From Henricia sp. BOLD:AAB3569 (lineage: Eukaryota; Echinodermata; Asteroidea; Spinulosida; Echinasteridae), in contig JBBELK010001465.1 in the NCBI GenBank assembly GCA_037783545.1, positions 124,001-188,000 on the forward strand: DNA of 64,000 bases. Reading direction: 5' to 3'. Shown here one piece after another: positions 20,176 through 56,595 of the stretch. Position 1 is the stretch's first letter. Each line of letters starts with the position of its first letter. The notes beneath the pieces are model-generated. The model saw nothing but the letters and a program-made list of their open reading frames with translations, did no database searches and was not told the origin of the DNA. Made by a program: the position numbers and the translations under genes.

Positions 20176-20380
20176 GCAGTCAGGAAGCCTCAACCCAGTT
20201 TTTTCTAAACTTTGAAATTTCTCTGCCATTTCCCGGCGAAAGTCTGTCAATTGTTTATGACAAGTGCGCAATATAGAGAGTTTAGGGCATGCAAAATTTG
20301 AAGTTCGTCGGAACATTTTTCGACCTCCAAATTTGCCGACGTTTGGACCACACTTTGACCAAATTGCCTTTTTCTAAAAT

Positions 20381-20402
20381 GTTTTATTCGTCCGAATAAA
20401 AC
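20381..20402. other. Perfect hairpin: 10-bp arms, 2-nt loop, near insert end
   Basis: GTTTTATTCG is followed by TC and then its exact reverse complement CGAATAAAAC. It begins 12 nt inside the left edge of the insert. The same sequence is present, unchanged, in all eleven inserts: also at 22824-22845, 45531-45552, 46488-46509, 47398-47419, 48605-48626, 49562-49583, 50769-50790, 52590-52611, 55038-55059 and 55995-56016. Its fixed position next to an end suggests a role in mobility or end definition, but that is inference. A transcription terminator is less likely because no T-run follows on either strand at the expected place. Confidence 0.9.
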
Positions 20403-20452
20403 ACGCTAACCAGTCCAACGTTGTTACCGATAGAACCAGTGCTTCAGGCGTT

Positions 20453-20633
20453 GTCGTTGCCAGTCCAGGTCATTTATCCACTAAGCGTTCGCCGTTATTG
20501 CCAAATTTCCTCATTCGTAGTCGTTGCCAGTCCAGGTCATTTATCCACCAATTGTTCGCCGTTATTGCCAAATTTCCTCATTCGTTGTCGTTGCCAGTCC
20601 AGGTCATTTATCCACCAAATTTCCTCATTCGTT
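20453..20633 (+). repeat. 67/47-bp minisatellite inside insert 1 (2 x 67 + 47)
   Basis: Units start GTCGTTGCCAGTCCAGGTC and end in ATTCGT(A/T). The 47-bp unit lacks 20 bp of the 67-bp form (the CTAAGCGTTCGCCGTTATTGCC part). A diverged partial unit with CCAATCC follows. Motifs related to CCAGTCCA also occur before the block (near 20410) and in the body (near 20771), so the insert may have more, older repeats of the same kind. Confidence 0.9.
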
Positions 20634-21004
20634 GTCGTTGCCAATCCAGGTCATTATCCGGCGAGTATTCTCCATCACAATCATCACCAATCTTGGTCGA
20701 TCGTGTCCGAGTATCAGGTCATATCCTTCGAGAAGCACCACAGGTACATCCTCATAAAACCACAATCGTCACCAGTCCAGGTCTGGAAGAATCAAGACCG
20801 CAGACTCGGATCCAATCGTGTTCCAAAATTGCATCGGCGTTCCCCGTGACGTACGTACTGGTCACTCCATCATTGAGCAACGTTCCAGGACATGACGGGA
20901 TTCCGCGAAAAACTCCTCCAAACTACCTATGTGCAAGGGTAGTCCTTTGGAAAGCGGTCATCACAGGCCAGCGAGGAAAGAACCCGTACGCCAACCCGAC
21001 CGCC

Positions 21005-21054
21005 CCAAACTGCGGTGCGTTAACGACCGAGCCAAACTGCGGTGCGTTAACGAC
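21005..21054 (+). repeat. 27-bp-period direct repeat at insert 1 right edge
   Basis: The 23-bp satellite string starting CCAAACTGCGG occurs at 21005-21027 and again at 21032-21054, separated by CGAG. The first copy belongs to the insert and the second to the resumed monomer. Nine of eleven inserts have this arrangement; inserts 2 and 8 have a single copy and lack GAG, as expected if the two copies recombined. Confidence 0.9.
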
Positions 21055-22811
21055 AGTCCGAATGACTGAGCATGCGCACAACTCAGGAGTACCCCAAAGA
21101 GGTGTGTACAGACAGCCACGGTTTGCGTGAGAGCAGTCAGGAAGCCTCAACCCAGTTTTTTCTAAACTTTGAAATTTCTCTGCCATTTCCCGGCGAAAGT
21201 CTGTCAATTTTTTATGACAAGTGCGCAATATAGAGAGTTTAGGGCATGCAAAATTTGAAGTTCGTCTGAACATTTTACGACCTCCAAATTTGCCGACGTT
21301 TGGACCACACTTTGACCAAATTGCCGAGCCAAACTGCAGTGCGTTAACGACAGTCCGAATGACTGAGCTTGCGCACAACTCAGGAGTACCCCAAAGAGGT
21401 GTGTACAGACAGCCACGGTTTGCGTGAGAGCAGTCAGGAAGCCTCAACCCAGTTTTTTTCTAAACTTTGAAATTTCTCTGCCATTTCCCGGCGAAAGTCT
21501 GTCATTTTTTTATGACAAATGCGCAATATAGACAGTTTAGGGCATGCAAAATTTGAAGTTCGTCGGAACATTTTTCGACCTCCAAATTTGCCGACGTTTG
21601 GACCACACTTTGACCAAATTGCCGAGCCAAACTGCGGTGCGTTAACGACAGTCCGAATGACTGAGCATGCACACAACTCAGGAGTACCCCAAAGAGGTGT
21701 GTACAGACAGCCACGGTTTGCGTGAGAGCAGTCAGGAAGCCTCAACCCAGTTTTTTCTAAACTTTGAAATTTCTCTGCCATTTCCCGGCGAAAGTCTGTC
21801 AATTTTTTATGACAAGTGCGCAATATAGAGAGTTAGGGCATGCAAAATTTGAAGTTCGTCGGAACATTTTTCGACCTCCAAATTTGCCGACGTTTGGACC
21901 ACACTTTGACCAAATTGCCGAGCCAAACTGCGGTGCGTTAACGACAGTCCGAATGACTGAGCATGCGCACAACTCAGGAGTACCCCAAAGAGGTGTGTAC
22001 AGACAGCCACGGTTTGCGTGAGAGCAGTCAGGAAGCCTCAACCCAGTTTTTTCTAAACTTTGAAATTTCTCTGCCATTTCCCGGCGAAAGTCTGTCAATT
22101 TTTTTATGACAAGTGCGCAATATAGAGAGTTTAGGGCATGCAAAATTTGAAGTTCGTCGGAACATTTTTCGACCTCCAAATTTTCCGACGTTTGGACCAC
22201 ACTTTGACCAAATTGCCGAGCCAAACTGCGGTGCGTTAACGACAGTCCGAATGACTGAGCATGCGCACAACTCAGGAGTACCCCAAAGAGGTGTGTACAG
22301 ACAGCCACGGTTTGCGTGAGAGCAGTCAGGAAGCCTCAACCCAGTTTTTTCTAAACTTTGAAATTTCTCTGCCATTTCCCGGCGAAAGTCTGCCAATTTG
22401 TTATGACAAATGCGCAATATAGAGAGTTTAGGGCATGCAAAATTTGAAGTTCGTCGGAACATTTCTCGACCTCCAAATTTGCCGACGTTTGGACCACACT
22501 TTGACCAAATTGCCGAGCCAAACTGCGGTGCGTTAACGACAGTCCGAATGACTGAGCATGCGCACAACTCAGGAGTACCTCAAAGAGGTGTGTACAGACA
22601 GCCACGGTTTGCGTGAGAGCAGTCAGGAAGCCTCAACCCAGTTTTTTATAAACTTTGAAATTTCTCTGCCATTTCCCGGCGAAAGTCTGTCAATTTTTTA
22701 TGACAAGTGCGCAATATAGAGAGTTTAGAGCATGCAAAATTTGAAGTTCGTCGGAACATTTTTCGACCTCCAAATTTGCCGACGTTTGGACCACACTTTG
22801 ACCAAATTGCC
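21029..22811 (+). repeat. 297-bp satellite array, segment 2 (6 monomers)
   Basis: The 1783 bp between inserts 1 and 2 equal six monomers plus one base. The monomer near 21204-21430 carries GTCTGAACATTTTACG, GCAGTGCG and GCTTGCGC, the same private set as the monomer 2146 bp upstream near 19058-19290. One monomer has lost a T (AGAGTTAGGG near 21834). The partial monomer just left of insert 2 carries TTTTATAAAC and TTTAGAGCATG, which are otherwise seen only near 26320-26405. Confidence 0.95.
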
Positions 22812-23514
22812 TTTTTCTAAAATGTTTTATTCGTCCGAATAAAACACGCTAACCAGTCCAACGTTGTTACCGATAGAACCAGTGCTTCAGCCGTTGTCGT
22901 TGCCAGTCCAGGTCATTTATCCACTAAGCGTTCGCCGTTATTGCCAAATTTCCTCATTCGTAGTCGTTGCCAGTCCAGGTCATTTATCCACTAAGCGTTC
23001 GCCGTTATTGCCAAATTTCCTCATTCGTAGTCGTTGCCAGTCCAGGTCATTTATCCACCAATTGTTCGCCGTTATTGCCAAATTTCCTCATTCGTTGTCG
23101 TTGCCAGTCCAGGTCATTTATCCACCAAATTTCCTCATTCGTTGTCGTTGCCAATCCAGGTCATTATCCGGCGAGTATTCTCCATCACAATCATCACCAA
23201 TCTTGGTCGATCGTGTCCGAGTATCAGGTCATATCCTTCGAGAAGCACCACAGGTACATCCTCATAAAACCACAATCGTCACCAGTCCAGGTCTGGAAGA
23301 ATCAAGACCGCAGACTCGGATCCAATCGTGTTCCAAAATTGCATCGGCGTTCCCCGTGACGTACGTACTGGTCACTCCATCATTGAGCAACGTTCCAGGA
23401 CATCACGGGATTCCGCGAAAAACTCCTCCAAACTACCTATGTGCAAGGGTAGTCCTTTGGAAAGCGGTCATCACAGGCCAGCGAGGAAAGAACCCGTACG
23501 CCAACCCGACCGCC
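22812..23514 (+). repeat. Insert 2: longest copy, 3 x 67 + 47 minisatellite (subfamily I)
   Basis: This 703-bp copy has the same left junction, hairpin (22824-22845) and body as insert 1. Its minisatellite has one additional 67-bp unit (22896-23143: 67, 67, 67, 47), which accounts for all of its extra length over the 636-bp form. At the right it passes directly into CCAAACTGCGG of the monomer, without the 27-bp duplication and without the GAG of the target. Body markers are of subfamily I (CTCATAAAACC, CTATGTG). The monomer resuming on the right has GCGTTAGAG and GTCAGAAAG. A plus-strand frame is open for 263 codons across insert and satellite; no domain is recognisable and two other frames are also open, so I do not call it a gene. 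Confidence 0.9.
22896..23143 (+). repeat. 67/47-bp minisatellite inside insert 2 (3 x 67 + 47)
   Basis: Unit starts are at 22896, 22963, 23030 and 23097; the last is the 47-bp form and is followed at 23144 by a diverged partial unit. The third unit has CCACCAATTGTTCGCC where the first two have CCACTAAGCGTTCGCC, as in the second unit of inserts 1 and 9. This is the highest copy number in the window. Confidence 0.92.
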
Positions 23515-26500
23515 CCAAACTGCGGTGCGTTAACGACAGTCCGAATGACTGAGCATGCGCACAACTCAGGAGTACCCCAAAGAGGTGTGTACAGACAGCC
23601 ACGGTTTGCGTTAGAGCAGTCAGAAAGCCTCAACCCAGTTTTTTCTAAACTTTGAAATTTCTCTGCCATTTCCCGGCGAAAGTCTGTCAATTTTTTATGA
23701 CAAGTGCGCAATATAGAGAGTTTAGGGCATGCAAAATTTGAAGTTCGTCGGAACATTTTTCGACCTCCAAATTTGCCGACGTTTGGACCACACTTTGACC
23801 AAATTGCCGAGCCAAACTGCGGTGCGTTAACGACAGTCCGAATGACTGAGCATGCGCACAACTCAGGAGTACCCCAAAGAGGTGTGTACAGACAGCCACG
23901 GTTTGCGTGAGAGCAGTCAGGAAGCCTCAACCCAGTTTTTTTCCAAACTTTGAAATTTCTCTGCCATTTCCCGGCGAAAGTCTGTCAATTTTTTATGACA
24001 AGTGCGCAATATAGAGAGTTTAGGGCATGCAAAATTTGAAGTTCGTCGGAACATTTTTCGACCTCCAAATTTGCCGACGTTTGGACCACACTTTGACCAA
24101 ATTGCCGAGCCAAACTGCGGTGCGTTAACGACAGTCCGAATGACTGAGCATGCGCACAACTCAGGAGTACCCCAAAGAGGTGTGTACAGACAGCCACGGT
24201 TTGCGTGAGAGCAGTCAGGAAGCCTCAACCCAGTTTTTTCTAAACTTTGAAATTTCTCTGCCATTTCCCGGCGAAAGTCTGTCAATTTTTTATGACAAGT
24301 GCGCAATATAGAGAGTTTAGGGCATGCAAAATTTGAAGTTCGTCGGAACATTTTTCAACCTCCAAATTTGCCGACGTTTGGACCACACTTTGACCAAATT
24401 GCCGAGCCAAACTGCGGTGCGTTAACGACAGTCCGAATGACTGAGCATGCGCACAACTCAGGAGTACCCCAAAGAGGTGTGTACAGACAGCCACGGTTTG
24501 CGTGAGAGCAGTCAGGAAGCCTCAACCCAGTTTTTTCCAAACTTTGAAATTTCTCTGCCATTTCCCTTCGAAAGTCTGTCAATTTTCTATGACAAGTGCG
24601 CAATATAGAGAGTTTAGGGCATGCAAAATTTGAAGTTCGTCGGAACATTTTTCAACCTCCAAATTTGCCGACGTTTGGACCACACTTTGACCAAATTGCC
24701 GAGCCAAACTGCGGTGCGTTAACGACAGTCCGAATGACTGAGCATGCGCACAACTCAGGAGTACCCCAAAGAGGTGTGTACAGACAGCCACGGTTTGCGT
24801 GAGAGCAGTCAGGAAGCCTCAACCCAGTTTTTTCCAAACTTTGAAATTTCTCTGCCATTTCCCTTCGAAAGTCTGTCAATTTTCTATGACAAGTGCGCAA
24901 TATAGAGAGTTTAGGGCATGCAAAATTTGAAGTTCGTCGGAACATTTTTCGACCTCCAAATTTGCCGACGTTTGGACCACACTTTGACCAAATTGCCGAG
25001 CCAAACTGCGGTGCGTTAACGACAGTCCGAATGACTGAGCATGCGCACAACTCAGGAGTACCCCCAAAGAGGTGTGTACAGACAGCCACGGTTTGCGTGA
25101 GAGCAGTCAGGAAGCCTCAACCCAGTTTTTTCTAAACTTTGAAATTTCTCTGCCATTTCCCGGCGAAAGTCTGTCAATTTTTTTATGACAAGTGCGCAAT
25201 ATACAGAGTTTAGGGCATGCAAAATTTGAAGTTCGTCGGAACATTTTTCGACCTCCAAATTTGCCGACGTTTGGACCACACTTTGACCAAATTGCCGAGC
25301 CAAACTGCGGTGCGTTAACGACAGTCCGAATGACTGAGCATGCGCACAACTCAGGAGTACCCCAAAGAGGTGTGTACAGACAGCCACGGTTTGCGTGAGA
25401 GCAGTCAGGAAGCCTCAACCCATTTTTTTCTAAACTTTGACATTTCTCTGCCATTTCCCGGCGAAAGTCTGTCAATTTTTTATGACAAGTGCGCAATATA
25501 GAGAGTTTAGGGCATGCAAAATTTGAAGTTCGTCGGAACATTTTTCGACCTCCAAATTTGCCGACGTTTGGACCACACTTTGACCAAATTGCCGAGCCAA
25601 ACTGCGGTGCGTTAACGACAGTCCGAATGACTGAGCATGCGCACAACTCAGGAGTACCCCAAAGAGGTGTGTACAGACAGCCACGGTTTGCGTGAGAGCA
25701 GTCAGGAAGCCTCAACCCAGTTTTTTCTAAACTTTGAAATTTCTCTGCCATTTCCCGGCGAAATTCTGTCAATTTTTTATGACAAGTGCGCAATATAGAG
25801 TGTTTAGGGCATGCAAAATTTGAAGTTCGTCGGAACATTTTTCGACCTCCAAATTTGCCGACGTTTGGACCACACTTTGACCAAATTGCCGAGCCAAACT
25901 GCGGTGCGTTAACGACAGTCCGAATGACTGAGCATGCGCACAACTCAGGAGTACCCCAAAGAGGTGTGTACAGACAGCCACGGTTTGCGTGAGAGCAGTC
26001 AGGAAGCCTCAACCCAGTTTTTTCTAAACTTTGCATTTTCTCTGCCATTTCCCGGCGAAAGGCTGTCAATTTGTTATGACAAGTGCGCAATATAGAGAGT
26101 TTAGGGCATGCAAAATTTGAAGTTCGTCGGAACATTTTTCGACCTCCAAATTTGCCGACGTTTGGACCACACTTTGACCAAATTGCCGAGCCAAACTGCG
26201 GTGCGTTAACGACAGTCCGAATGACTGAGCATGCGCACAACTCAGGAGTACCCCAAAGAGGTGTGTACAGACAGCCACGGTTTGCGTGAGAGCAGTCAGG
26301 AAGCCTCAACCCAGTTTTTTATAAACTTTGAAATTTCTCTGCCATTTCCCGGCGAAAGTCTGTCAATTTTTTATGACAAGTGCGCAATATAGAGAGTTTA
26401 GAGCATGCAAAATTTGAAGTTCGTCGGAACATTTTTCGACCTCCAAATTTGCCGACGTTTGGACCACACTTTGACCAAATTGCCGAGCCAAACTGCGGTG

Positions 26501-28707
26501 CGTTAACGACAGTCCGAATGACTGAGCATGCGCACAACTCAGGAGTACCCCAAAGAGGTGTGTACAGACAGCCACGGTTTGCGTTAGAGCAGTCAGAAAG
26601 CCTCAACCCAGTTTTTTCTAAACTTTGAAATTTCTCTGCCATTTCCCGGCGAAAGGCTGTCAATTTTTTATGACAAGTCCGCAATATAGAGAGTTTAGGG
26701 CATGCAAAATTTGAAGTTCGTCTGAACATTTTACGACCTCCAAATTTGCCGACGTTTGGACCACACTTTGACCAAATTGCCGAGCCAAACTGCGGTGCGT
26801 TAACGACAGTCCGAATGACTGAGCATGCGCACAACTCAGGAGTACCCCAAAGAGGTGTGTACAGACAGCCACGGTTTGCGTGAGAGCAGTCAGGAAGCCT
26901 CAACCCAGTTTTTTCTAAACTTTGAAATTTCTCTGCCATTTCCCGGCGAAAGTCTGTCAATTTTTTATGACAAGTGCGCAATATAGAGAGTTTAGGGCAT
27001 GCAAAATTTGAAGTTCGTCAGAACATTTTTCGACCTCCAAATTTGCCGACGTTTGGACCACACTTTGACCAAATTGCCGAGCCAAACTGCGGTGCGTTAA
27101 CGACAGTCCGAATGACTGAGCATGCGCACAACTCAGGAGTACCCCAAAGAGGTGTGTACAGACAGCCACGGTTTGCGTGAGAGCAGTCAGGAAGCCTCAA
27201 CCCAGTTTTTTCTAAACTTTGAAATTTCTCTGCCATTTCCCGGCGAAAGTCTGTCAATTTTTTATGACAAGTGCGCAATATAGAGAGTTTAGGGCATGCA
27301 AAATTTGAAGTTCGTCGGAACATTTTTCAACCTCCAAATTTGCCGACGTTTGGACCACACTTTGACCAAATTGCCGAGCCAAACTGCGGTGCGTTAACGA
27401 CAGTCCGAATGACTGAGCATGCGCACAACTCAGGAGTACCCCAAAGAGGTGTGTACAGACAGCCACGGTTTGCGTGAGAGCAGTCAGGAAGCCTCAACCC
27501 AGTTTTTTCCAAACTTTGAAATTTCTCTGCCATTTCCCGGCGAAAGTCTGTCAATTTTTTATGACAAGTGCGCAATATAGAGAGTTTAGGGCATGCAAAA
27601 TTTGAAGTTCGTCGGAACATTTTTCGACCTCCAAATTTGCCGACGTTTGGACCACACTTTGACCAAATTGCCGAGCCAAACTGCGGTGCGTTAACGACAG
27701 TCCGAATGACTGAGCATGCGCACAACTCAGGAGTACCCCCAAAGAGGTGTGTACAGACAGCCACGGTTTGCGTGAGAGCAGTCAGGAAGCCTCAACCCAG
27801 TTTTTTCTAAACTTTGAAATTTCTCTGCCATTTCCCGGCGAAAGTCTGTCAATTTTTTTATGACAAGTGCGCAATATACAGAGTTTAGGGCATGCAAAAT
27901 TTGAAGTTCGTCGGAACATTTTTCGACCTCCAATTTTGCCGACGTTTGGACCACACTTTGACCAAATTGCCGAGCCAAACTGCGGTGCGTTAACGACAGT
28001 CCGAATGACTGAGCATGCGCACAACTCAGGAGTACCCCAAAGAGGTGTGTACAGACAGCCACGGTTTGCTTGAGAGCAGTCAGGAAGCCTCAACCCATTT
28101 TTTTCTAAACTTTGACATTTCTCTGCCATTTCCCGGCGAAAGTCTGTCAATTTTTTATGACAAGTGCGCAATATAGAGAGTTTAGGGCATGCAAAATTTG
28201 AAGTTCGTCGGAACATTTTTCGACCTCCAAATTTGCCGACGTTTGGACCACACTTTGACCAAATTGCCGAGCCAAACTGCGGTGCGTTAACGACAGTCCG
28301 AATGACTGAGCATGCGCACAACTCAGGAGTACCCCAAAGAGGTGTGTACAGACAGCCACGGTTTGCGTGAGAGCAGTCAGGAAGCCTCAACCCAGTTTTT
28401 TCTAAACTTTGAAATTTCTCTGCCATTTCCCGGCGAAAGTCTGTCAATTTTTTATGACAAGTGCGCAATATAGAGTGTTTAGGGCATGCAAAATTTGAAG
28501 TTCGTCGGAACATTTTTCGACCTCCAAATTTGCCGACGTTTGGACCACACTTTGACCAAATTGCCGAGCCAAACTGCGGTGCGTTAACGACAGTCCGAAT
28601 GACTGAGCATGCGCACAACTCAGGAGTACCCCAAAGAGGTGTGTACAGACAGCCACGGTTTGCGTGAGGGCAGTCAGGAAGCCTCAACCCAGTTTTTTTC
28701 TAAACTT

Positions 28708-30495
28708 TGAAATTTCTCTGCCATTTCCCGGCGAAAGTCTGTCAATTTTTTATGACAAGTGCGCAATATAGAGAGTTTAGGGCATGCCAAATTTGAAGTT
28801 CGTCGGAACATTTTTCGACCTCCATATTTGCCGACGTTTGGACCACACTTTGACCAAATTGCCGAGCCAAACTGCGATGCGTTAACGACAGTCCGAATGA
28901 CTGAGCATGCGCACAACTCAGGAGTACCCCCAAAGAGGTGTGTACAGACAGCCACGGTTTGCGTGAGAGCAGTCAGGAAGCCTCAACCCAGTTTTTTCTA
29001 AACTTTGAAATTTCTCTGCCATTTCCCCGCGAAAGTCTGTCAATTTTTTTATGACAAGTGCGCAATATACAGAGTTTAGGGCATGCAAAATTTGAAGTTC
29101 GTCGGAACATTTTTCGACCTCCAAATTTGCCGACGTTTGGACCACACTTTGACCAAATTGCCGAGCCAAACTGCGGTGCGTTAACGACAGTCCGAATGAC
29201 TGAGCATGCGCACAACTCAGGAGTACCCCAAAGAGGTGTGTACAGACAGCCACGGTTTGCGTGAGAGCAGTCAGGAAGCCTCAACCCAGTTTTTTCTAAA
29301 CTTTGAAATTTCTCTGCCATTTCCCGGCGAAAGTCTGTCAATTTTTTTATGACAAGTGCGCAATATAGAGAGTTTAGGGCATGCAAAATTTGAAGTTCGT
29401 CTGAACATTTTTCGACCTCCAAATTTGCCGACGTTTGGACCACACTTTGACTAAATTGCCGAGCCAAACTGCGGTGCGTTAACGACAGTCCGAATGACTG
29501 AGCATGCGCACAACTCAGGAGTACCCCAAAGAGGTGTGTACAGACAGCCACGGTTTGCGTGAGAGCAGTCAGGAAGCCTCAACCCAGTTTTTTCTAAACT
29601 TTGAAATTTCTCTGCCATTTCCCGGCGAAAGTCTGTCAATTTTGTATGACAAGTGCGCAATATAGAGAGTTTAGGGCATGCCAAATTTGAAGTTCGTCGG
29701 AACATTTTTCGACCTCCATATTTGCCGACGTTTGGACCACACTTTGACCAAATTGCCGAGCCAAACTGCGATGCGTTAACGACAGTCCGAATGACTGAGC
29801 ATGCGCACAACTCAGGAGTACCCCCAAAGAGGTGTGTACAGACAGCCACGGTTTGCGTGAGAGCAGTCAGGAAGCCTCAACCCAGTTTTTTCTAAACTTT
29901 GAAATTTCTCTGCCATTTCCCCGCGAAAGTCTGTCAATTTTTTTATGACAAGTGCGCAATATACAGAGTTTAGGGCATGCAAAATTTGAAGTTCGTCGGA
30001 ACATTTTTCGACCTCCAAATTTGCCGACGTTTGGACCACACTTTGACCAAATTGCCGAGCCAAACTGCGGTGCGTTAACGACAGTCCGAATGACTGAGCA
30101 TGCGCACAACTCAGGAGTACCCCAAAGAGGTGTGTACAGACAGCCACGGTTTGCGTGAGAGCAGTCAGGAAGCCTCAACCCAGTTTTTTCTAAACTTTGA
30201 AATTTCTCTGCCATTTCCCGGCGAAAGTCTGTCAATTTTTTTATGACAAGTGCGCAATATAGAGAGTTTAGGGCATGCAAAATTTGAAGTTCGTCTGAAC
30301 ATTTTTCGACCTCCAAATTTGCCGACGTTTGGACCACACTTTGACTAAATTGCCGAGCCAAACTGCGGTGCGTTAACGACAGTCCGAATGACTGAGCATG
30401 CGCACAACTCAGGAGTACCCCAAAGAGGTGTGTACAGACAGCCACGGTTTGCGTGAGAGCAGTCAGGAAGCCTCAACCCAGTTTTTTCTAAACTT
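28708..30495 (+). repeat. Tandem trimer duplication (2 x 894 bp)
   Basis: Monomer order is five-C type with GGCATGCCAAAT and CTCCATATTTG, then ATATACAGAG with CCCCGCGAAAG, then GTCTGAACATTTTTCG with TTTGACTAAATT. It occurs at 28708-29601 and again at 29602-30495, offset by 894 bp. The only difference I noticed is TTTTGTATGAC near 29641 against TTTTTTATGAC near 28747. This is a recent local duplication. Confidence 0.88.
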
Positions 30496-45518: not shown

Positions 45519-46178
45519 TTTTTCTAAAATGTTTTATTCGTCCGAATAAAACACGCTAACCAGTCCAACGTTGTTACCGATAGAACCAGTGCTTCAGCCG
45601 TTGTCGTTGCCAGTCCAGGTCATTTATCCACTAAGCGTTCGCCGTTATTGCCAAATTTCCTCATTCGTAGTCGTTGCCAGTCCAGGTCATTTATCCACTA
45701 AGCGTTCGCCGTTATTGCCAAATTTCCTCATTCGTTGTCGTTGCCAGTCCAGGTCATTTATCCACAAAATTTCCTCATTCGTTGTCGTTGCCAATCCAGG
45801 TCATTATCCGGCGAGTATTCTCCATCACAATCATCACCAATCTTGGTCGATCGTGTCCGAGTATCAGGTCATATCCTTCGAGAAGCACCACAGGTACATC
45901 CTCATGAAACCACAATCGTCACCAGTCCAGGTCTGGAAGAATCAAGACCGCAGACTCGGATCCAATCGTGTTCCAAAATTGCATCGGCGTTCCCCGTGAC
46001 GTACGTACTGGTCACTCCATCATTGAGCAACGTTCCAGGACATCACGGGATTCCGCGAAAAACTCCTCCAAACTACCTACGTGCAAGGGTAGTCCTTTGG
46101 AAAGCGGTCATCACAGGCCAGCGAGGAAAGAACCCGTACGCCAACCCGACCGCCCCAAACTGCGGTGCGTTAACGACC
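45519..46178 (+). repeat. Insert 3 (636-bp core, subfamily II)
   Basis: Same junction, hairpin and body as insert 1, with a 67+67+47 minisatellite (45603-45783) and the 24-nt satellite-derived right end. Subfamily II markers: CTCATGAAACC, CTACCTACGTG and CCACAAAATTTCC in the 47-bp unit. The monomer entering from the left has GAAATGTCTC, AATGTTTTATG and GCACAATTTG, and a private CCAAAGTGCC at the junction itself. Confidence 0.9.
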
Positions 46179-46475
46179 GAGCCAAACTGCGGTGCGTTAA
46201 CGACAGTCCGAATGACTGAGCATGCGCACAACTCAGGAGTACCCCAAAGAGGTGTGTACAGACAGCCACGGTTTGCGTGAGAGCAGTCAGGAAGCCTCAA
46301 CCCAGTTTTTTCTAAACTTTGAAATGTCTCTGCCATTTCCCGGCGAAAGTCTGTCAATGTTTTATGACAAGTGCGCAATATAGAGAGTTTAGGGCATGCA
46401 CAATTTGAAGTTCGTCGGAACATTTTTCGACCTCCAAATTTGCCGACGTTTGGACCACACTTTGACCAAATTGCC
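46179..46475 (+). repeat. Single satellite monomer-length between inserts 3 and 4
   Basis: Exactly 297 bp: the right part of one monomer, from GAG, and the left part of the next, to ATTGCC. The exact length shows that both flanking inserts use the same monomer position. The left-flank variants GAAATGTCTC, AATGTTTTATG and GCACAATTTG are present. Confidence 0.93.
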
Positions 46476-47088
46476 TTTTTCTAAAATGTTTTATTCGTCC
46501 GAATAAAACACGCTAACCAGTCCAACGTTGTTACCGATAGAACCAGTGCTTCAGCCGTTGTCGTTGCCAGTCCAGGTCATTTATCCACTAAGCGTTCGCC
46601 GTTATTGCCAAATTTCCTCATTCGTAGTCGTTGCCAGTCCAGGTCATTTATCCACTAAGCGTTCGCCGTTATTGCCAAATTTCCTCATTCGTTGTCGTTG
46701 CCAATCCAGGTCATTATCCGGCGAGTATTCTCCATCACAATCATCACCAATCTTGGTCGATCGTGTCCGAGTATCAGGTCATATCCTTCGAGAAGCACCA
46801 CAGGTACATCCTCATGAAACCACAATCGTCACCAGTCCAGGTCTGGAAGAATCAAGACCGCAGACTCGGATCCAATCGTGTTCCAAAATTGCATCGGCGT
46901 TCCCCGTGACGTACGTACTGGTCACTCCATCATTGAGCAACGTTCCAGGACATCACGGGATTCCGCGAAAAACTCCTCCAAACTACCTACGTGCAAGGGT
47001 AGTCCTTTGGAAAGCGGTCATCACAGGCCAGCGAGGAAAGAACCCGTACGCCAACCCGACCGCCCCAAACTGCGGTGCGTTAACGACC
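46476..47088 (+). repeat. Insert 4 (589-bp core, subfamily II, no 47-bp unit)
   Basis: Identical in layout to insert 3 except that the 47-bp minisatellite unit is missing, leaving two 67-bp units (46560-46693). Hairpin at 46488-46509. The 24-nt satellite-derived right end is present. Confidence 0.9.
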
Positions 47089-47385
47089 GAGCCAAACTGC
47101 GGTGCGTTAACGACAGTCCGAATGACTGAGCATGCGCACAACTCAGGAGTACCCCAAAGAGGTGTGTACAGACAGCCACGGTTTGCGTGAGAGCAGTCAG
47201 GAAGCCTCAACCCAGTTTTTTCTAAACTTTGAAATGTCTCTGCCATTTCCCGGCGAAAGTCTGTCAATGTTTTATGACAAGTGCGCAATATAGAGAGTTT
47301 AGGGCATGCACAATTTGAAGTTCGTCGGAACATTTTTCGACCTCCAAATTTGCCGACGTTTGGACCACACTTTGACCAAATTGCC
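47089..47385 (+). repeat. Single satellite monomer-length between inserts 4 and 5
   Basis: Exactly 297 bp, with the same GAAATGTCTC / AATGTTTTATG / GCACAATTTG variants as 46179-46475. With insert 4 it forms a 910-bp composite unit that is followed by an apparently identical insert 5. Confidence 0.93.
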
Positions 47386-47998
47386 TTTTTCTAAAATGTT
47401 TTATTCGTCCGAATAAAACACGCTAACCAGTCCAACGTTGTTACCGATAGAACCAGTGCTTCAGCCGTTGTCGTTGCCAGTCCAGGTCATTTATCCACTA
47501 AGCGTTCGCCGTTATTGCCAAATTTCCTCATTCGTAGTCGTTGCCAGTCCAGGTCATTTATCCACTAAGCGTTCGCCGTTATTGCCAAATTTCCTCATTC
47601 GTTGTCGTTGCCAATCCAGGTCATTATCCGGCGAGTATTCTCCATCACAATCATCACCAATCTTGGTCGATCGTGTCCGAGTATCAGGTCATATCCTTCG
47701 AGAAGCACCACAGGTACATCCTCATGAAACCACAATCGTCACCAGTCCAGGTCTGGAAGAATCAAGACCGCAGACTCGGATCCAATCGTGTTCCAAAATT
47801 GCATCGGCGTTCCCCGTGACGTACGTACTGGTCACTCCATCATTGAGCAACGTTCCAGGACATCACGGGATTCCGCGAAAAACTCCTCCAAACTACCTAC
47901 GTGCAAGGGTAGTCCTTTGGAAAGCGGTCATCACAGGCCAGCGAGGAAAGAACCCGTACGCCAACCCGACCGCCCCAAACTGCGGTGCGTTAACGACC
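47386..47998 (+). repeat. Insert 5 (589-bp core, subfamily II)
   Basis: Same as insert 4 at an offset of 910 bp; I saw no difference. Two 67-bp units, hairpin at 47398-47419, 24-nt satellite-derived right end. Confidence 0.9.
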
Positions 47999-48592
47999 GA
48001 GCCAAACTGCGGTGCGTTAACGACAGTCCGAATGACTGAGCATGCGCACAACTCAGGAGTACCCCAAAGAGGTGTGTACAGACAGCCACGGTTTGCGTGA
48101 GAGCAGTCAGGAAGCCTCAACCCAGTTTTTTCTAAACTTTGAAATTTCTCTGCCATTTCCCGGCGAAAGTCTGTCAATTTTTTATGACAAGTGCGCAATA
48201 TAGAGAGTTTAGGGCATGCAAAATTTGAAGTTCGTCGGAACATTTTTCGACCTCCAAATTTGCCGACGTTTGGACCACACTTTGACCAAATTGCCGAGCC
48301 AAACTGCGGTGCGTTAACGACAGTCCGAATGACTGAGCATGCGCACAACTCAGGAGTACCCCAAAGAGGTGTGTACAGACAGCCACGGTTTGCGTGAGAG
48401 CAGTCAGGAAGCCTCAACCCAGTTTTTTCTAAACTTTGAAATGTCTCTGCCATTTCCCGGCGAAAGTCTGTCAATGTTTTATGACAAGTGCGCAATATAG
48501 AGAGTTTAGGGCATGCACAATTTGAAGTTCGTCGGAACATTTTTCGACCTCCAAATTTGCCGACGTTTGGACCACACTTTGACCAAATTGCC
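47999..48592 (+). repeat. Two satellite monomer-lengths between inserts 5 and 6
   Basis: Exactly 594 bp. A consensus monomer is followed by the left part of a monomer with GAAATGTCTC, AATGTTTTATG and GCACAATTTG that carries insert 6. The same order occurs at 50163-50756. At 56596-57290 the corresponding marked monomer has no insert. Confidence 0.93.
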
Positions 48593-49252
48593 TTTTTCTA
48601 AAATGTTTTATTCGTCCGAATAAAACACGCTAACCAGTCCAACGTTGTTACCGATAGAACCAGTGCTTCAGCCGTTGTCGTTGCCAGTCCAGGTCATTTA
48701 TCCACTAAGCGTTCGCCGTTATTGCCAAATTTCCTCATTCGTAGTCGTTGCCAGTCCAGGTCATTTATCCACTAAGCGTTCGCCGTTATTGCCAAATTTC
48801 CTCATTCGTTGTCGTTGCCAGTCCAGGTCATTTATCCACAAAATTTCCTCATTCGTTGTCGTTGCCAATCCAGGTCATTATCCGGCGAGTATTCTCCATC
48901 ACAATCATCACCAATCTTGGTCGATCGTGTCCGAGTATCAGGTCATATCCTTCGAGAAGCACCACAGGTACATCCTCATGAAACCACAATCGTCACCAGT
49001 CCAGGTCTGGAAGAATCAAGACCGCAGACTCGGATCCAATCGTGTTCCAAAATTGCATCGGCGTTCCCCGTGACGTACGTACTGGTCACTCCATCATTGA
49101 GCAACGTTCCAGGACATCACGGGATTCCGCGAAAAACTCCTCCAAACTACCTACGTGCAAGGGTAGTCCTTTGGAAAGCGGTCATCACAGGCCAGCGAGG
49201 AAAGAACCCGTACGCCAACCCGACCGCCCCAAACTGCGGTGCGTTAACGACC
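48593..49252 (+). repeat. Insert 6 (636-bp core, subfamily II)
   Basis: Copy of insert 3 at +3074 bp, with 67+67+47 units and the satellite-derived right end. Its junction has the ordinary CCAAATTGCC, not the private CCAAAGTGCC of insert 3. Hairpin at 48605-48626. Confidence 0.9.
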
Positions 49253-49549
49253 GAGCCAAACTGCGGTGCGTTAACGACAGTCCGAATGACTGAGCATGCG
49301 CACAACTCAGGAGTACCCCAAAGAGGTGTGTACAGACAGCCACGGTTTGCGTGAGAGCAGTCAGGAAGCCTCAACCCAGTTTTTTCTAAACTTTGAAATG
49401 TCTCTGCCATTTCCCGGCGAAAGTCTGTCAATGTTTTATGACAAGTGCGCAATATAGAGAGTTTAGGGCATGCACAATTTGAAGTTCGTCGGAACATTTT
49501 TCGACCTCCAAATTTGCCGACGTTTGGACCACACTTTGACCAAATTGCC
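49253..49549 (+). repeat. Single satellite monomer-length between inserts 6 and 7
   Basis: Exactly 297 bp, same subtype as 46179-46475 and 47089-47385. Confidence 0.93.
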
Positions 49550-50162
49550 TTTTTCTAAAATGTTTTATTCGTCCGAATAAAACACGCTAACCAGTCCAAC
49601 GTTGTTACCGATAGAACCAGTGCTTCAGCCGTTGTCGTTGCCAGTCCAGGTCATTTATCCACTAAGCGTTCGCCGTTATTGCCAAATTTCCTCATTCGTA
49701 GTCGTTGCCAGTCCAGGTCATTTATCCACTAAGCGTTCGCCGTTATTGCCAAATTTCCTCATTCGTTGTCGTTGCCAATCCAGGTCATTATCCGGCGAGT
49801 ATTCTCCATCACAATCATCACCAATCTTGGTCGATCGTGTCCGAGTATCAGGTCATATCCTTCGAGAAGCACCACAGGTACATCCTCATGAAACCACAAT
49901 CGTCACCAGTCCAGGTCTGGAAGAATCAAGACCGCAGACTCGGATCCAATCGTGTTCCAAAATTGCATCGGCGTTCCCCGTGACGTACGTACTGGTCACT
50001 CCATCATTGAGCAACGTTCCAGGACATCACGGGATTCCGCGAAAAACTCCTCCAAACTACCTACGTGCAAGGGTAGTCCTTTGGAAAGCGGTCATCACAG
50101 GCCAGCGAGGAAAGAACCCGTACGCCAACCCGACCGCCCCAAACTGCGGTGCGTTAACGACC
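49550..50162 (+). repeat. Insert 7 (589-bp core, subfamily II)
   Basis: Copy of insert 4 at +3074 bp and of insert 5 at +2164 bp. Two 67-bp units; hairpin at 49562-49583; satellite-derived right end present. Confidence 0.9.
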
Positions 50163-50756
50163 GAGCCAAACTGCGGTGCGTTAACGACAGTCCGAATGAC
50201 TGAGCATGCGCACAACTCAGGAGTACCCCAAAGAGGTGTGTACAGACAGCCACGGTTTGCGTGAGAGCAGTCAGGAAGCCTCAACCCAGTTTTTTCTAAA
50301 CTTTGAAATTTCTCTGCCATTTCCCGGCGAAAGTCTGTCAATTTTTTATGACAAGTGCGCAATATAGAGAGTTTAGGGCATGCAAAATTTGAAGTTCGTC
50401 GGAACATTTTTCGACCTCCAAATTTGCCGACGTTTGGACCACACTTTGACCAAATTGCCGAGCCAAACTGCGGTGCGTTAACGACAGTCCGAATGACTGA
50501 GCATGCGCACAACTCAGGAGTACCCCAAAGAGGTGTGTACAGACAGCCACGGTTTGCGTGAGAGCAGTCAGGAAGCCTCAACCCAGTTTTTTCTAAACTT
50601 TGAAATGTCTCTGCCATTTCCCGGCGAAAGTCTGTCAATGTTTTATGACAAGTGCGCAATATAGAGAGTTTAGGGCATGCACAATTTGAAGTTCGTCGGA
50701 ACATTTTTCGACCTCCAAATTTGCCGACGTTTGGACCACACTTTGACCAAATTGCC
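50163..50756 (+). repeat. Two satellite monomer-lengths between inserts 7 and 8
   Basis: Exactly 594 bp, same arrangement as 47999-48592: a consensus monomer, then the marked left flank with GAAATGTCTC, AATGTTTTATG and GCACAATTTG. Confidence 0.93.
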
Positions 50757-51392
50757 TTTTTCTAAAATGTTTTATTCGTCCGAATAAAACACGCTAACCA
50801 GTCCAACGTTGTTACCGATAGAACCAGTGCTTCAGCCGTTGTCGTTGCCAGTCCAGGTCATTTATCCACTAAGCGTTCGCCGTTATTGCCAAATGTCCTC
50901 ATTCGTAGTCGTTGCCAGTCCAGGTCATTTATCCACTAAGCGTTCGCCGTTATTGCCAATTTTCCTCATTCGTAGTCGTTGCCAGTCCAGGTCATTTATC
51001 CACCAAATTTCCTCATTCGTTGTCGTTGCCAATCCAGGTCATTATCCGGCGAGTATTCTCCATCACAATCATCACCAATCTTGGTCGATCGTGTCCGAGT
51101 ATCAGGTCATATCCTTCGAGAAGCACCACAGGTACATCCTCATAAAACCACAATCGTCACCAGTCCAGGTCTGGAAGAATCAAGACCGCAGACTCGGATC
51201 CAATCGTGTTCCAAAATTGCATCGGCGTTCCCCGTGACGTACGTACTGGTCACTCCATCATTGAGCAACGTTCCAGGACATCACGGGATTCCGCGAAAAA
51301 CTCCTCCAAACTACCTATGTGCAAGGGTAGTCCTTTGGAAAGCGGTCATCACAGGCCAGCGAGGAAAGAACCCGTACGCCAACCCGACCGCC
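50757..51392 (+). repeat. Insert 8: mosaic of subfamilies, single-copy right end
   Basis: The left flank is of the type seen with subfamily II inserts, and the second 67-bp unit has CTAAGCGTTCGCC as in subfamily II. The 47-bp unit (CCACCAAATTTCC) and the body (CTCATAAAACC, CTATGTG) are of subfamily I. The switch lies at about 50940-51005. It has private changes AAATGTCCTC, CCAATTTTCC and CTGCTGTGCG near the right edge. Like insert 2 it lacks the 27-bp duplication and the target GAG. Hairpin at 50769-50790. Confidence 0.9.
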
Positions 51393-52577
51393 CCAAACTG
51401 CTGTGCGTTAACGACAGTCCGAATGACTGAGCATGCGCACAACTCAGGAGTACCCCAAAGAGGTGTGTACAGACAGCCACGGTTTGCGTGAGAGCAGTCA
51501 GGAAGCCTCAACCCAGTTTTTTCTAAACTTTGAAATTTCTCTGCCATTTCCCGGCGAAAGTCTGTCAATTTTTTATGACAAGTGCGCAATATAGAGAGTT
51601 TAGGGCATGCAAAATTTGAAGTTCGTCGGAACATTTTTCGACCTCCAAATTTGCCGACGTTTGGACCACACTTTGACCAAATTGCCGAGCCAAACTGCGG
51701 TGCGTTAACGACAGTCCGAATGACTGAGCATGCGCACAACTCAGGAGTACCCCAAAGAGGTGTGTACAGACAGCCACGGTTTGCGTGAGAGCAGTCAGGA
51801 AGCCTCAACCCAGTTTTGTCTAAACTTTGAAATTTCTCTGCCATTTCCCGGCGAAAGTCTGTCAATTTTTTATGACAAGTGCGCAATATAGAGAGTTTAG
51901 GGCATGCAAAATTTGAAGTTCGTCGGAACATTTTTCGACCTCCAAATTTGCCGACGTTTGGACCACACTTTGACCAAATTGCCGAGCCAAACTGCGGTGC
52001 GTTAACGACAGTCCGAATGACTGAGCATGCGCACAACTCAGGAGTACCCCAAAGAGGTGTGTACAGACAGCCACGGTTTGCGTGAGAGCAGTCAGGAAGC
52101 CTCAACCCAGTTTTTTCTAAACTTTGAAATTTCTCTGCCATTTCCCGGCGAAAGTCTGTCAATTTTTTATGACAAGTGCGCAATATAGAGAGTTTAGGGC
52201 ATGCAAAATTTGAAGTTCGTCGGAACATTTTTCGACCTCCAAATTTGCCGACGTTTGGACCACACTTTGACCAAATTGCCGAGCCAAACTGCGGTGCGTT
52301 AACGACAGTCCGAATGACTGAGCATGCGCACAACTCAGGAGTACCCCAAAGAGGTGTGTACAGACAGCCACGGTTTGCGTGAGAGCAGTCAGGAAGCCTC
52401 AACCCAGTTTTTTCTAAACTTTGAAATTTCTCTGCCATTTCCCGGCGAAAGTCTGTCAATTTTTTATGACAAGTGCGCAATATAGAGAGTTTAGGGCATG
52501 CAAAATTTGAAGTTCGTCGGAACATTTTTCGACCTCCAAATTTGCCGACGTTTGGACCACACTTTGACCAAATTGCC
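51393..52577 (+). repeat. Satellite between inserts 8 and 9 (4 monomers minus GAG)
   Basis: 1185 bp, that is 4 x 297 minus the three bases lost at the right edge of insert 8. Monomers are close to consensus; one has TTTTGTCTAAAC near 51815. The partial monomer before insert 9 is consensus, so it has neither subfamily II flank variants nor those of insert 1 or 2. Confidence 0.93.
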
Positions 52578-53240
52578 TTTTTCTAAAATGTTTTATTCGT
52601 CCGAATAAAACACGCTAACCAGTCCAACGTTGTTACCGATAGAACCAGTGCTTCAGCAGCCGTTGTCGTTGCCAGTCCAGGTCATTTATCCACTAAGCGT
52701 TCGCCGTTATTGCCAAATTTCCTCATTCGTAGTCGTTGCCAGTCCAGGTCATTTATCCACCAATTGTTCGCCGTTATTGCCAAATGTCCTCATTCGTTGT
52801 CGTTGCCAGTCCAGGTCATTTATCCACCAAATTTCCTCATTCGTTGTCGTTGCCAATCCAGGTCATTATCCGGCGAGTATTCTCCATCACAATCATCACC
52901 AATATTGGTCGATCGTGTCCGAGTATCAGGTCATATCCTTCGAGAAGCACCACAGGTACATCCTCATAAAACCACAATCGTCACCAGTCCAGGTCTGGAA
53001 GAATCAAGACCGCAGACTCGGATCCAATCGTGTTCCAAAATTGCATCGGCGTTCCCCGTGACGTACGTACTGGTCACTCCATCATTGAGCAACGTTCCAG
53101 GACATCACGGGATTCCGCGAAAAACTCCTCCAAACTACCTATGTGCAAGGGTAGTCCTTTGGAAAGCGGTCATCACAGGCCAGCGAGGAAAGAACCCGTA
53201 CGCCAACCCGACCGCCCCAAACTGCGGTGCGTTAACGACC
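52578..53240 (+). repeat. Insert 9 (639-bp core, subfamily I)
   Basis: Subfamily I body with 67+67+47 units. It has a 3-bp expansion (CTTCAGCAGCCG near 52651) and private AAATGTCC and CAATATTGG. The second 67-bp unit has CCACCAATTGTTCGCC as in inserts 1 and 2. The 24-nt satellite-derived right end and intact GAG are present. Hairpin at 52590-52611. Confidence 0.9.
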
Positions 53241-55025
53241 GAGCCAAACTGCGGTGCGTTAACGACAGTCCGAATGACTGAGCATGCGCACAACTCAGGA
53301 GTACCCCAAAGAGGTGTGTACAGACAGCCACGGTTTGCGTGAGAGCAGTCAGGAAGCCTCAACCCAGTTTTTTTCCAAACTTTGAAATTTCTCTGCCATT
53401 TCCCGGCGAAAGTCTGTCAATTTTTTATGACAAGTGCGCAATATAGAGAGTTTAGGGCATGCAAAATTTGAAGTTCGTCGGAACATTTTTCGACCTCCAA
53501 ATTTGCCGACGTTTGGACCACACTTTGACCAAATTGCCGAGCCAAACTGCGGTGCGTTAACGACAGTCCGAATGACTGAGCATGCGCACAACTCAGGAGT
53601 ACCCCAAAGAGGTGTGTACAGACAGCCACGGTTTGCGTGAGAGCAGTCAGGAAGCCTCAACCCAGTTTTTTCTAAACTTTGAAATTTCTCTGCCATTTCC
53701 CGGCGAAAGTCTGTCAATTTTTTATGACAAGTGCGCAATATAGAGAGTTTAGGGCATGCAAAATTTGAAGTTCGTCGGAACATTTTTCGACCTCCAAATT
53801 TGCCGACGTTTGGACCACACTTTGACCAAATTGCCGAGCCAAACTGCGGTGCGTTAACGACAGACCGAATGACTGAGCATGCGCACAACTCAGGAGTACC
53901 CCAAAGAGGTGTGTACAGACAGCCACGGTTTGCGTGAGAGCAGTCAGGAAGCCTCAACCCAGTTTTTTTCTAAACTTTGAAATTTCTCTGCCATTTCCCG
54001 GCGAAAGTCTGTCAATTTTTTATGACAAGTGCGCAATATAGAGAGTTTAGGGCATGCAAAATTTGAAGTTCGTCGGAACATTTTTCGACCTTCAAATTTG
54101 CCGACGTTTGGACCACACTTTGACCAAATTGCCGAGCCAAACTGCGGTGCGTTAACGACAGTCCGAATGACTGAGCATGCGCACAACTCAGGAGTACCCC
54201 AAAGAGGTGTGTACAGACAGCCACGGTTTGCGTGAGAGCAGTCAGGAAGACTCAACCCAGTTTTTTTCTAAACTTTGAAATTTCTCTGCCATTTCCATGC
54301 GAAAGTCTGTCAATTTTTTATGACAAGTGCGCAATATAGAGAGTTTAGGGCATGCAAAATTTGAAGTTCGTCGGAACATTTTTCGACCTCCAAATTTGCC
54401 GACGTTTGGACCACACTTTGACCAAATTGCCGAGCCAAACTGCGGTGCGTTAACGACAGTCCGAATGACTGAGCATGCGCACAACTCAGGAGTACCCCAA
54501 AGAGGTGTGTACAGACAGCCACCGTTTGCGTAAGAGCAGTCAGGAAGCCTCAACCCAGTTTTTTCTAAACTTTGAAATTTCTCTGCCATTTCCCGGCGAA
54601 AGTCTGTCAATTTTTTATGACAAGTGCGCAATATAGAGAGTTTAGGGCATGCAAAATTTGAAGTTCGTCGGAACATTTTTCGACCTCCAAATTCGCCGAC
54701 GTTTGGACCACACTTTGACCAAATTGCCGAGCCAAACTGTGGTGCGTTAACGACAGTCCGAATGACTGAGCATGCGCACAACTCAGGAGTACCCCAAAGA
54801 GGTGTGTACAGACAGCCACGGTTTGCGTGAGAGCAGTCAGGAAGCCTCAACCCAGTTTTTTCTAAACTTTGAAATGTCTCTGCCATTTCCCGGCGAAAGT
54901 CTGTCAATGTTTTATGACAAGTGCGCAATATAGAGAGTTTAGGGCATGCACAATTTGAAGTTCGTCGGAACATTTTTCGACCTCCAAATTTGCCGACGTT
55001 TGGACCACACTTTGACCAAATTGCC
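53241..55025 (+). repeat. Satellite between inserts 9 and 10 (6 monomers)
   Basis: 1785 bp, six monomers plus three extra T (T7 runs near 53367, 53963 and 54261). Private changes include CAGACCGAATG near 53862, GACCTTCAAAT near 54088 and TTCCATGCGAAAG near 54294. The last three monomers are the CCACCG / AAATTCGCC / GCACAATTTG trimer that also precedes insert 3. Confidence 0.94.
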
Positions 55026-55685
55026 TTTTTCTAAAATGTTTTATTCGTCCGAATAAAACACGCTAACCAGTCCAACGTTGTTACCGATAGAACCAGTGCT
55101 TCAGCCGTTGTCGTTGCCAGTCCAGGTCATTTATCCACTAAGCGTTCGCCGTTATTGCCAAATTTCCTCATTCGTAGTCGTTGCCAGTCCAGGTCATTTA
55201 TCCACTAAGCGTTCGCCGTTATTGCCAAATTTCCTCATTCGTTGTCGTTGCCAGTCCAGGTCATTTATCCACAAAATTTCCTCATTCGTTGTCGTTGCCA
55301 ATCCAGGTCATTATCCGGCGAGTATTCTCCATCACAATCATCACCAATCTTGGTCGATCGTGTCCGAGTATCAGGTCATATCCTTCGAGAAGCACCACAG
55401 GTACATCCTCATGAAACCACAATCGTCACCAGTCCAGGTCTGGAAGAATCAAGACCGCAGACTCGGATCCAATCGTGTTCCAAAATTGCATCGGCGTTCC
55501 CCGTGACGTACGTACTGGTCACTCCATCATTGAGCAACGTTCCAGGACATCACGGGATTCCGCGAAAAACTCCTCCAAACTACCTACGTGCAAGGGTAGT
55601 CCTTTGGAAAGCGGTCATCACAGGCCAGCGAGGAAAGAACCCGTACGCCAACCCGACCGCCCCAAACTGCGGTGCGTTAACGACC
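55026..55685 (+). repeat. Insert 10 (636-bp core, subfamily II)
   Basis: Copy of insert 3 at +9507 bp, with 67+67+47 units, subfamily II markers, hairpin at 55038-55059 and satellite-derived right end. Confidence 0.9.
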
Positions 55686-55982
55686 GAGCCAAACTGCGGT
55701 GCGTTAACGACAGTCCGAATGACTGAGCATGCGCACAACTCAGGAGTACCCCAAAGAGGTGTGTACAGACAGCCACGGTTTGCGTGAGAGCAGTCAGGAA
55801 GCCTCAACCCAGTTTTTTCTAAACTTTGAAATGTCTCTGCCATTTCCCGGCGAAAGTCTGTCAATGTTTTATGACAAGTGCGCAATATAGAGAGTTTAGG
55901 GCATGCACAATTTGAAGTTCGTCGGAACATTTTTCGACCTCCAAATTTGCCGACGTTTGGACCACACTTTGACCAAATTGCC
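55686..55982 (+). repeat. Single satellite monomer-length between inserts 10 and 11
   Basis: Exactly 297 bp, same subtype as 46179-46475. Confidence 0.93.
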
Positions 55983-56595
55983 TTTTTCTAAAATGTTTTA
56001 TTCGTCCGAATAAAACACGCTAACCAGTCCAACGTTGTTACCGATAGAACCAGTGCTTCAGCCGTTGTCGTTGCCAGTCCAGGTCATTTATCCACTAAGC
56101 GTTCGCCGTTATTGCCAAATTTCCTCATTCGTAGTCGTTGCCAGTCCAGGTCATTTATCCACTAAGCGTTCGCCGTTATTGCCAAATTTCCTCATTCGTT
56201 GTCGTTGCCAATCCAGGTCATTATCCGGCGAGTATTCTCCATTACAATCATCACCAATCTTGGTCGATCGTGTCCGAGTATCAGGTCATATCCTTCGAGA
56301 AGCACCACAGGTACATCCTCATGAAACCACAATCGTCACCAGTCCAGGTCTGGAAGAATCAAGACCGCAGACTCGGATCCAATCGTGTTCCAAAATTGCA
56401 TCGGCGTTCCCCGTGACGTACGTACTGGTCACTCCATCATTGAGCAACGTTCCAGGACATCACGGGATTCCGCGAAAAACTCCTCCAAACTACCTACGTG
56501 CAAGGGTAGTCCTTTGGAAAGCGGTCATCACAGGCCAGCGAGGAAAGAACCCGTACGCCAACCCGACCGCCCCAAACTGCGGTGCGTTAACGACC
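55983..56595 (+). repeat. Insert 11 (589-bp core, subfamily II)
   Basis: Copy of insert 4 at +9507 bp with one private change (CCATTACAATC near 56240). Two 67-bp units; hairpin at 55995-56016; satellite-derived right end. It is the last insert in the window. Confidence 0.9.

What the first reader, a model, noticed from the sequence alone, without database searches (positions are those of the whole stretch)
20369..56595. Eleven copies of an unknown 0.6-0.7-kb unit all sit at one exact point of the satellite monomer
Every insert joins the monomer at ATTGCC on the left and CCAAACTGCGG or GAGCCAAAC on the right, in the same orientation. Spacing between successive inserts is a whole number of monomers (297, 594, 1783, 1785 bp). 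At least four different left-flank haplotypes occur: TTGTTTATG before insert 1, ATAAAC/TAGAGCATG before insert 2, AATGTTTT/GCACAATTTG before the subfamily II inserts and insert 8, and consensus before insert 9. One insertion followed by simple block duplication would carry one haplotype. So either insertion is site-specific and recurrent, comparable in principle to R1/R2 elements of rDNA (though nothing here resembles them), or conversion tracts end close to the junction.
Basis: partly seen in the sequence, partly recalled or inferred. Interest (0 to 1): 0.72.

Follow-up and report, generated by a model that had tools for sequence, protein, structure and literature searches.

The report
Insert spreading inside a satellite array
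A 0.6-0.7-kb apparently non-coding piece of DNA sits at exactly the same point in eleven units of a tandemly repeated satellite, and surrounding variants show it was gained by, lost from, or swapped between otherwise identical units; copying between neighbouring repeats explains this most simply, though a site-seeking mobile element is not excluded.

Summary
The window is a homogeneous 297-bp satellite (190 complete units). Eleven units carry a 613-703-bp insert, all in one orientation, at one point (after consensus position 167). Most telling are I2 and empty 26318, which share four variants lying on both sides of the point. Inserts I2 and I8 are identical outside the minisatellite (0/518) and share a 27-bp contraction, yet their flanks differ at 8/294 sites. 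So insert and flanks have been uncoupled; block duplication fits only part of the copies (I3-I7, I10, I11). Recurrent site-specific insertion does not follow: joints are uniform, no conserved frame or terminal inverted repeat was found, and both insert ends match the satellite (10 bp left; 23 bp right in nine of 11). Best reading: one capture of a satellite-edged fragment, then spread and loss by short-tract conversion and unequal exchange. The decisive test, copies elsewhere in the genome, could not be run: the genome search did not complete, so organism and origin are unknown.

The parts
1..64000 (.). 297-bp satellite array, 190 complete units; the 179 short units lie on average 0.7% from consensus; CpG observed/expected 1.01 for the window
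20369..21028 (+). Insert I1 (660 bp, type A right end)
22812..23514 (+). Insert I2 (703 bp, extra 67-bp unit, 27-bp contraction at right end)
45519..46178 (+). Insert I3 (660 bp, subfamily IIa)
46476..47088 (+). Insert I4 (613 bp, subfamily IIb)
47386..47998 (+). Insert I5 (613 bp, IIb)
48593..49252 (+). Insert I6 (660 bp, IIa)
49550..50162 (+). Insert I7 (613 bp, IIb)
50757..51392 (+). Insert I8 (636 bp, I2-like insert with 27-bp contraction, but group II left flank)
52578..53240 (+). Insert I9 (663 bp)
55026..55685 (+). Insert I10 (660 bp, IIa)
55983..56595 (+). Insert I11 (613 bp, IIb)
26318..26614 (.). Empty unit 83 with exactly the four flank variants of I2 (4C>A 85G>A 268G>T 280G>A), which lie on both sides of the insertion point
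57023..57319 (.). Empty unit 167 with exactly the group II flank haplotype (18T>G 51T>G 93A>C), at the block position that I6 (offset 16) and I8 (offset 13) hold in aligned blocks
59102..59398 (.). Empty unit 174 (51T>G 93A>C) after a 259 / 133+179 context like that before I3 and I10
62963..63259 (.). Empty unit 187 (51T>G 93A>C), same context as unit 174
46487..46510 (.). 11-bp perfect palindrome with 2-base loop near the left end of the insert (shown for I4)
46556..46719 (+). 67-bp minisatellite inside the insert (shown for I4; Tandem Repeats Finder gives 2.5-3.5 copies among inserts)
47057..47114 (+). 27-bp partial tandem duplication at the right junction (shown for I4); its 23-bp core copies satellite positions 171-193

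Best explanation
A chimeric fragment entered one satellite monomer once. It consists of about 10 bp of satellite (TTTTTCTAAA), about 0.6 kb of foreign, apparently non-coding sequence with a palindrome and a 67-bp minisatellite, and 23 bp of satellite (positions 171-193). It went in between positions 167 and 168 (shown: anatomy and identical left junctions; inferred: single event, and end-joining or template-switch capture). It then multiplied in two ways. Unequal exchange duplicated whole blocks (well supported for I3-I7, I10, I11). Short gene-conversion tracts put the insert into, took it out of, or swapped it between monomers with different pre-existing flank haplotypes (shown: presence and absence on identical haplotypes and the I2/I8 mismatch; inferred: that the process is conversion). 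The 67-bp and 27-bp repeats inside it changed length along the way.
For: All 11 inserts share the exact left joint; 9 of 11 share the odd right joint with its extra 23-bp satellite copy, and the other two fit a clean contraction between the direct repeats. Nine of 11 filled units have an exactly matching empty unit; the I2/26318 match involves four variants spanning the insertion point and is not part of a longer matching block. I2 and I8 differ at 0 of 518 insert sites (minisatellite left out) and 8 of 294 flank sites; chance that all 8 fall in flank 0.0003, pair chosen after looking, out of 10 pairs. Insert diversity is lower than that of its own flanks (mean pairwise 0.39% versus 1.43%; 5/521 versus 9/294 segregating sites, Fisher p=0.045, five representative inserts of 11), which suggests that the insert is younger than the haplotypes it sits in. 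Five changes of insert state on the flank tree of 190 units, against a mean of 9.8 and a minimum of 7 in 200 label shuffles: clustered, but more than one event on that quick tree. Block duplications. The insert's first 10 bases occur in the monomer (26 of 20,000 shuffled monomers hold them) and its last 23, in nine of 11, match positions 171-193.
Against: Gain by conversion would have to copy 0.6-0.7 kb of heterology while leaving variants within 82 bp on the left and 101 bp on the right unaltered. Loss is easier but does not explain spread. Direction is not proven for any pair. Exact twins as such are common (29 of 66 units with three or more variants, 8 of 32 with four or more), so the weight lies on the difference in insert state alone. 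The 27-bp contraction of I2 and I8 could have happened twice, and their identical cores may simply be the unchanged ancestral state. Few variants carry the argument. Whether the insert exists elsewhere in the genome is untested.
Confidence: 0.72

Rival explanations
1. The insert is a non-autonomous, site-specific mobile element that has repeatedly inserted at ATTG-CC-GAG in the monomer, its 23-bp 3' tail pairing with the target.
For: One exact site and orientation in 11 of 11; several flank haplotypes, both distinctive ones with an exact empty twin; in nine of 11 a 3' tail identical to sequence just downstream of the site; possible 2-bp CC target duplication, read by eye from the joints.
Against: No variable left ends or truncations among 11; open frames not conserved, no Rfam match around I1 and I2, no Pfam match for the I2 and I4 frames; no terminal inverted repeat in I4, the one insert tested; subfamily II and its blocks look like duplications; conversion explains the same data.
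Confidence: 0.13
2. One insertion followed only by block duplication; flank haplotypes arose by later mutation.
For: I3-I7, I10 and I11 fit block duplications. I8 with group II is compatible with one tree for the left flank and sites 624 and 798: three of four combinations occur. The 27-bp contraction could be recurrent.
Against: Exact empty twins of filled haplotypes; I2/I8 0/518 versus 8/294; the 27-bp contraction crosses the flank grouping.
Confidence: 0.08
3. The long unit is ancestral and the 297-bp monomer arose by precise deletion of the insert.
For: 2-bp microhomology (CC) at the joint, read by eye; the insert ends resemble satellite.
Against: 179 of 190 units are empty and more diverse (1.16% mean pairwise) than the inserts (0.39%, five representatives); nine of 11 carry the intact GAG plus an extra 23-bp copy, as expected of insertion into an intact monomer.
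Confidence: 0.05

Closest known systems
Satellite families that acquired DNA insertions (Diadromus and Eupelmus wasps, Rojas-Rousse et al. 1993; Arabidopsis 500-bp repeat related to pAL1 plus a foreign element)
   Same: Foreign DNA in a satellite unit, amplified with it (known here only from a reference title and a passage in review PMC8122249)
   Different: Here filled and empty units of the same haplotype are interspersed in one array, so gain and loss can be followed. I did not read the primary papers, so they may hold similar cases.
R1/R2-type site-specific non-LTR retrotransposons in rDNA (recalled)
   Same: One exact site and orientation in a tandem unit; many empty units
   Different: No reverse transcriptase frame found, uniform left ends, minisatellite inside, satellite target; independence of insertions not shown
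Higher-order repeats in satellites (recalled)
   Same: Block duplications of several monomers including filled ones (2164-bp and 3074-bp periods)
   Different: The insert also differs between units of one haplotype independently of blocks

Membership tests
Satellite with an amplified internal insertion | Insert at one phase of the monomer, one orientation | tested here: met
   11 of 11
Satellite with an amplified internal insertion | Copies multiplied by array duplication | tested here: met
   I3-I7, I10, I11 lie in matching blocks; not so for I1, I2, I9
Satellite with an amplified internal insertion | Insert amplified only within the satellite | tested here: inconclusive
R1/R2-type site-specific non-LTR element | Encodes reverse transcriptase and endonuclease | tested here: not met
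   0.6-0.7 kb, frame not conserved between inserts, 0 Pfam families for the two insert frames scanned (I2, I4); a non-autonomous relative is not excluded
R1/R2-type site-specific non-LTR element | Independent insertions with variable 5' ends or target changes (recalled) | tested here: not met
   Left joint identical in 11 of 11
R1/R2-type site-specific non-LTR element | Exact site in a tandem multicopy target | tested here: met
Helitron or Helentron | TC and CTRR ends, A^T (or T^T) target, 3' hairpin (recalled) | tested here: not met
   Palindrome near one end (I4), but ends and target differ (read by eye)
TIR DNA transposon | Terminal inverted repeats with target duplication | tested here: not met
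   No inverted pair joins the two ends of I4, the one insert tested

The most novel reading that the evidence does not exclude
A non-coding element homes to one point of a satellite monomer: it copies itself into empty units through its satellite-identical 3' tail with almost no co-conversion, a selfish element living on a satellite as R1/R2 live on rDNA.
Probability: 0.12. Interest if true: 0.8.

Novelty: new member of a known kind. Interest (0 to 1): 0.42.

Why it matters
Filled and empty units of identical haplotype in one array mark single exchange events, with the insert as a large visible tag. This could let tract length, direction and gain/loss bias of satellite homogenisation be measured, which is hard from point variants alone (my inference). 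If the insert proved mobile, it would be a satellite-specific element, a kind I know little precedent for.

Tried and rejected
Coding insert: stop-to-stop frames of 227-270 codons run through seven of 11 inserts into the right flank (I1, I2, I4, I5, I7, I9, I11); the other four (I3, I6, I8, I10) list no plus-strand frame of 200 codons or more. The longest frame within the I4 insert (194 codons) was reached by 30 of 2000 first-order shuffles, so it is somewhat unusual, but the 67-bp unit shifts the frame between inserts; rejected as coding. Known RNA: no Rfam match in 20000-24000 up to E=1 (covers I1, I2 and monomers); no tRNA in the window. Structure: the I4 insert plus 30 bases folds no better than shuffles (z -0.78; 5 of 20 shuffles at least as stable). 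Relatives: no match in plasmids (insert with flanks, monomer) or phages (insert with flanks), and none for one exact 25-mer of the insert and one exact 24-mer of the monomer in viral contigs and genome contigs; these collections are prokaryotic or viral, so the absence says little if the satellite is eukaryotic, as I assume. Literature: six sequence words found two papers on unrelated subjects; word searches listed zero papers, five, ten of 11, ten of 28 and two; I saw these as listings only, apart from ten passages of PMC8122249. Pfam hits on one minus-strand read-through of the satellite (DUF371, Zds_C, LMP above their cut-offs; PP1_inhibitor and LRR_8 below) are sums over repeated weak matches with no stretch passing alone; not taken as genes.

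Rows and columns dropped: insert distances use I1, I2, I4, I8, I9 (five of 11, block copies left out) and leave out alignment columns 300-484 with the minisatellite; the core tree leaves out columns 240-483, so site 249 and the CAG of I9 are not in it; flank trees use substitutions only, so 294insT is not in them. For I2 and I8, which lack GAG, the flank comparison supplied GAG, hiding that difference.
Full report
OBSERVATION. The window is one 297-bp satellite. Anchoring gives 190 complete units: 179 of 296-299 bp and 11 of 910-997 bp. The 179 short units lie on average 0.7% from their consensus and 1.16% from each other by substitutions. In all 11 long units the extra DNA begins after consensus position 167 (ATTGCC; AGTGCC in I3). 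In nine it ends before GAGCCAAAC, in two (I2, I8) before CCAAAC. Whole-monomer spacing follows from this and is no separate fact. The longest insert finds nothing in the window outside the 11 inserts (66 hits, all overlapping inserts).

ANATOMY. From left to right the insert has TTTTTCTAAA (also present across the unit boundary of the monomer; 26 of 20,000 shuffled monomers contain it), an 11-bp palindrome with a 2-base loop (I4), a 67-bp minisatellite of variable copy number, and about 400 bp more. The best local matches of the I1 insert to the monomer were the 22 bases at its right end (44 points; the end was cut one base short there) on the plus strand and 18-point ones on the minus strand. 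In nine of 11 there follows a 23-bp copy of satellite positions 171-193 and then the intact monomer right side. I2 and I8 lack one copy of this 27-bp tandem, as a contraction between direct repeats would give. The insert therefore looks like a piece of a satellite-edged locus set into an intact monomer. I infer capture of a broken or template-switched fragment. No step of that event is shown.

FLANKS. Six flank haplotypes are filled; four of these, holding nine of 11 inserts, have an exact empty twin. Two of the four are single variants shared with empty units (I1, I9) and prove little, because 91 of the 170 units with any variant have an exact twin. Twins are also common among units with three or more variants (29 of 66) and four or more (8 of 32), as block duplication would give; what counts is that insert state differs within a twin set. 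I2 and empty unit 26318 share 4C>A and 85G>A left of the point and 268G>T and 280G>A right of it, while the neighbouring units do not match as whole haplotypes (the units before them share only 53T>G). Group II and empty unit 57023 share 18T>G, 51T>G and 93A>C; 57023 stands where aligned blocks have I6 and I8. Two further empty units (59102, 62963) carry 51T>G and 93A>C after a 259 / 133+179 context like that before I3 and I10.

INSERT VERSUS FLANK. Outside the minisatellite I2 and I8 are identical (0/518) and share the 27-bp contraction, yet their flanks differ at 8/294. I8 instead shares the group II left flank (I4-I8: 1/294 flank, 2/518 insert). If differences fell at random over 812 sites, all eight in the flank has probability 0.0003; the pair was picked after looking, from ten. 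Over five representatives the inserts are less diverse than their flanks (0.39% versus 1.43%; Fisher p=0.045 on segregating sites). The flank tree groups group II with I8 (97/96). The core tree puts I2 and I8 together with I1 and I9 against group II, with support 94/91, short of the star. On the flank tree of all 190 units the insert state changes five times, against a mean of 9.8 and a minimum of 7 in 200 label shuffles: clustered, as block duplication would give, yet not one event. That tree was a quick one and I did not look at its supports. Against my reading: the left flank and sites 624 and 798 alone are compatible with a single tree (three of four combinations); the contraction may have happened twice; the identical I2 and I8 cores may be the unchanged ancestral state. 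The empty twins are then what remains.

MECHANISM. Block duplication fits I3-I7, I10 and I11. The rest needs the insert to enter, leave or be exchanged with little of its flank: within 82 bp on the left (85 to 167) and 101 bp on the right (167 to 268) for I2. Gene conversion between monomers does this, most easily as loss (a break in the insert repaired from an empty neighbour) and as insert-to-insert exchange for I8; this is inference from known repair pathways. Site-specific insertion would do it too, but (recalled from non-LTR elements) predicts variable ends or target changes, and all left joints are the same. Open frames run through seven of 11 inserts but not in one conserved frame; Pfam gave nothing for the two insert frames scanned, Rfam nothing in 20000-24000, and no tRNA was found. 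I give conversion plus unequal exchange 0.72 and a mobile element 0.13.

LIMITS. The organism is unknown. CpG observed/expected of 1.01 argues only against a strongly CpG-depleted genome. Most of the argument rests on about ten informative variants.

NOVELTY. DNA insertion into satellite units followed by amplification is in print (a reference title and a passage in PMC8122249; primary papers not read). I file this case as a new member of that kind, valuable for its tagged exchange events. My word searches listed no paper whose title names this arrangement, but they were few and narrow.

Noticed in passing
33158-37025 and 40593-44459: A 13-unit block (units 106-118) is repeated 25 units further on (units 131-143) with nearly the same variants; several shorter block duplications (offsets 3, 6, 13, 19) also exist.
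   Followed up: partly
19608-21456: I1 sits at a mosaic point: the two units before it match units 19-20 (offset 46), the unit after it nearly matches unit 63 (offset 5), so an exchange joint may fall in or next to the filled unit.
   Followed up: partly
5566-9210, 15426-19244, 56490-60299 (minus strand): The 297-bp monomer (99 codons) is open in one minus-strand frame, giving read-through frames up to 1272 codons; 326 of 2000 shuffled monomers have at least one open frame, so this is not remarkable. Repeated weak Pfam matches (DUF371 and others) arise from the one stretch scanned, 5569-9210.
   Followed up: yes
satellite consensus positions 49-54: The T-run is a hotspot of variants (inserted T, T>G, T>C) across many units.
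   Followed up: no
23515-45518: No insert in 22.0 kb between I2 and I3, and none before I1 (1-20368) or after I11 (56596-64000), so the inserts fall in two clusters.
   Followed up: no
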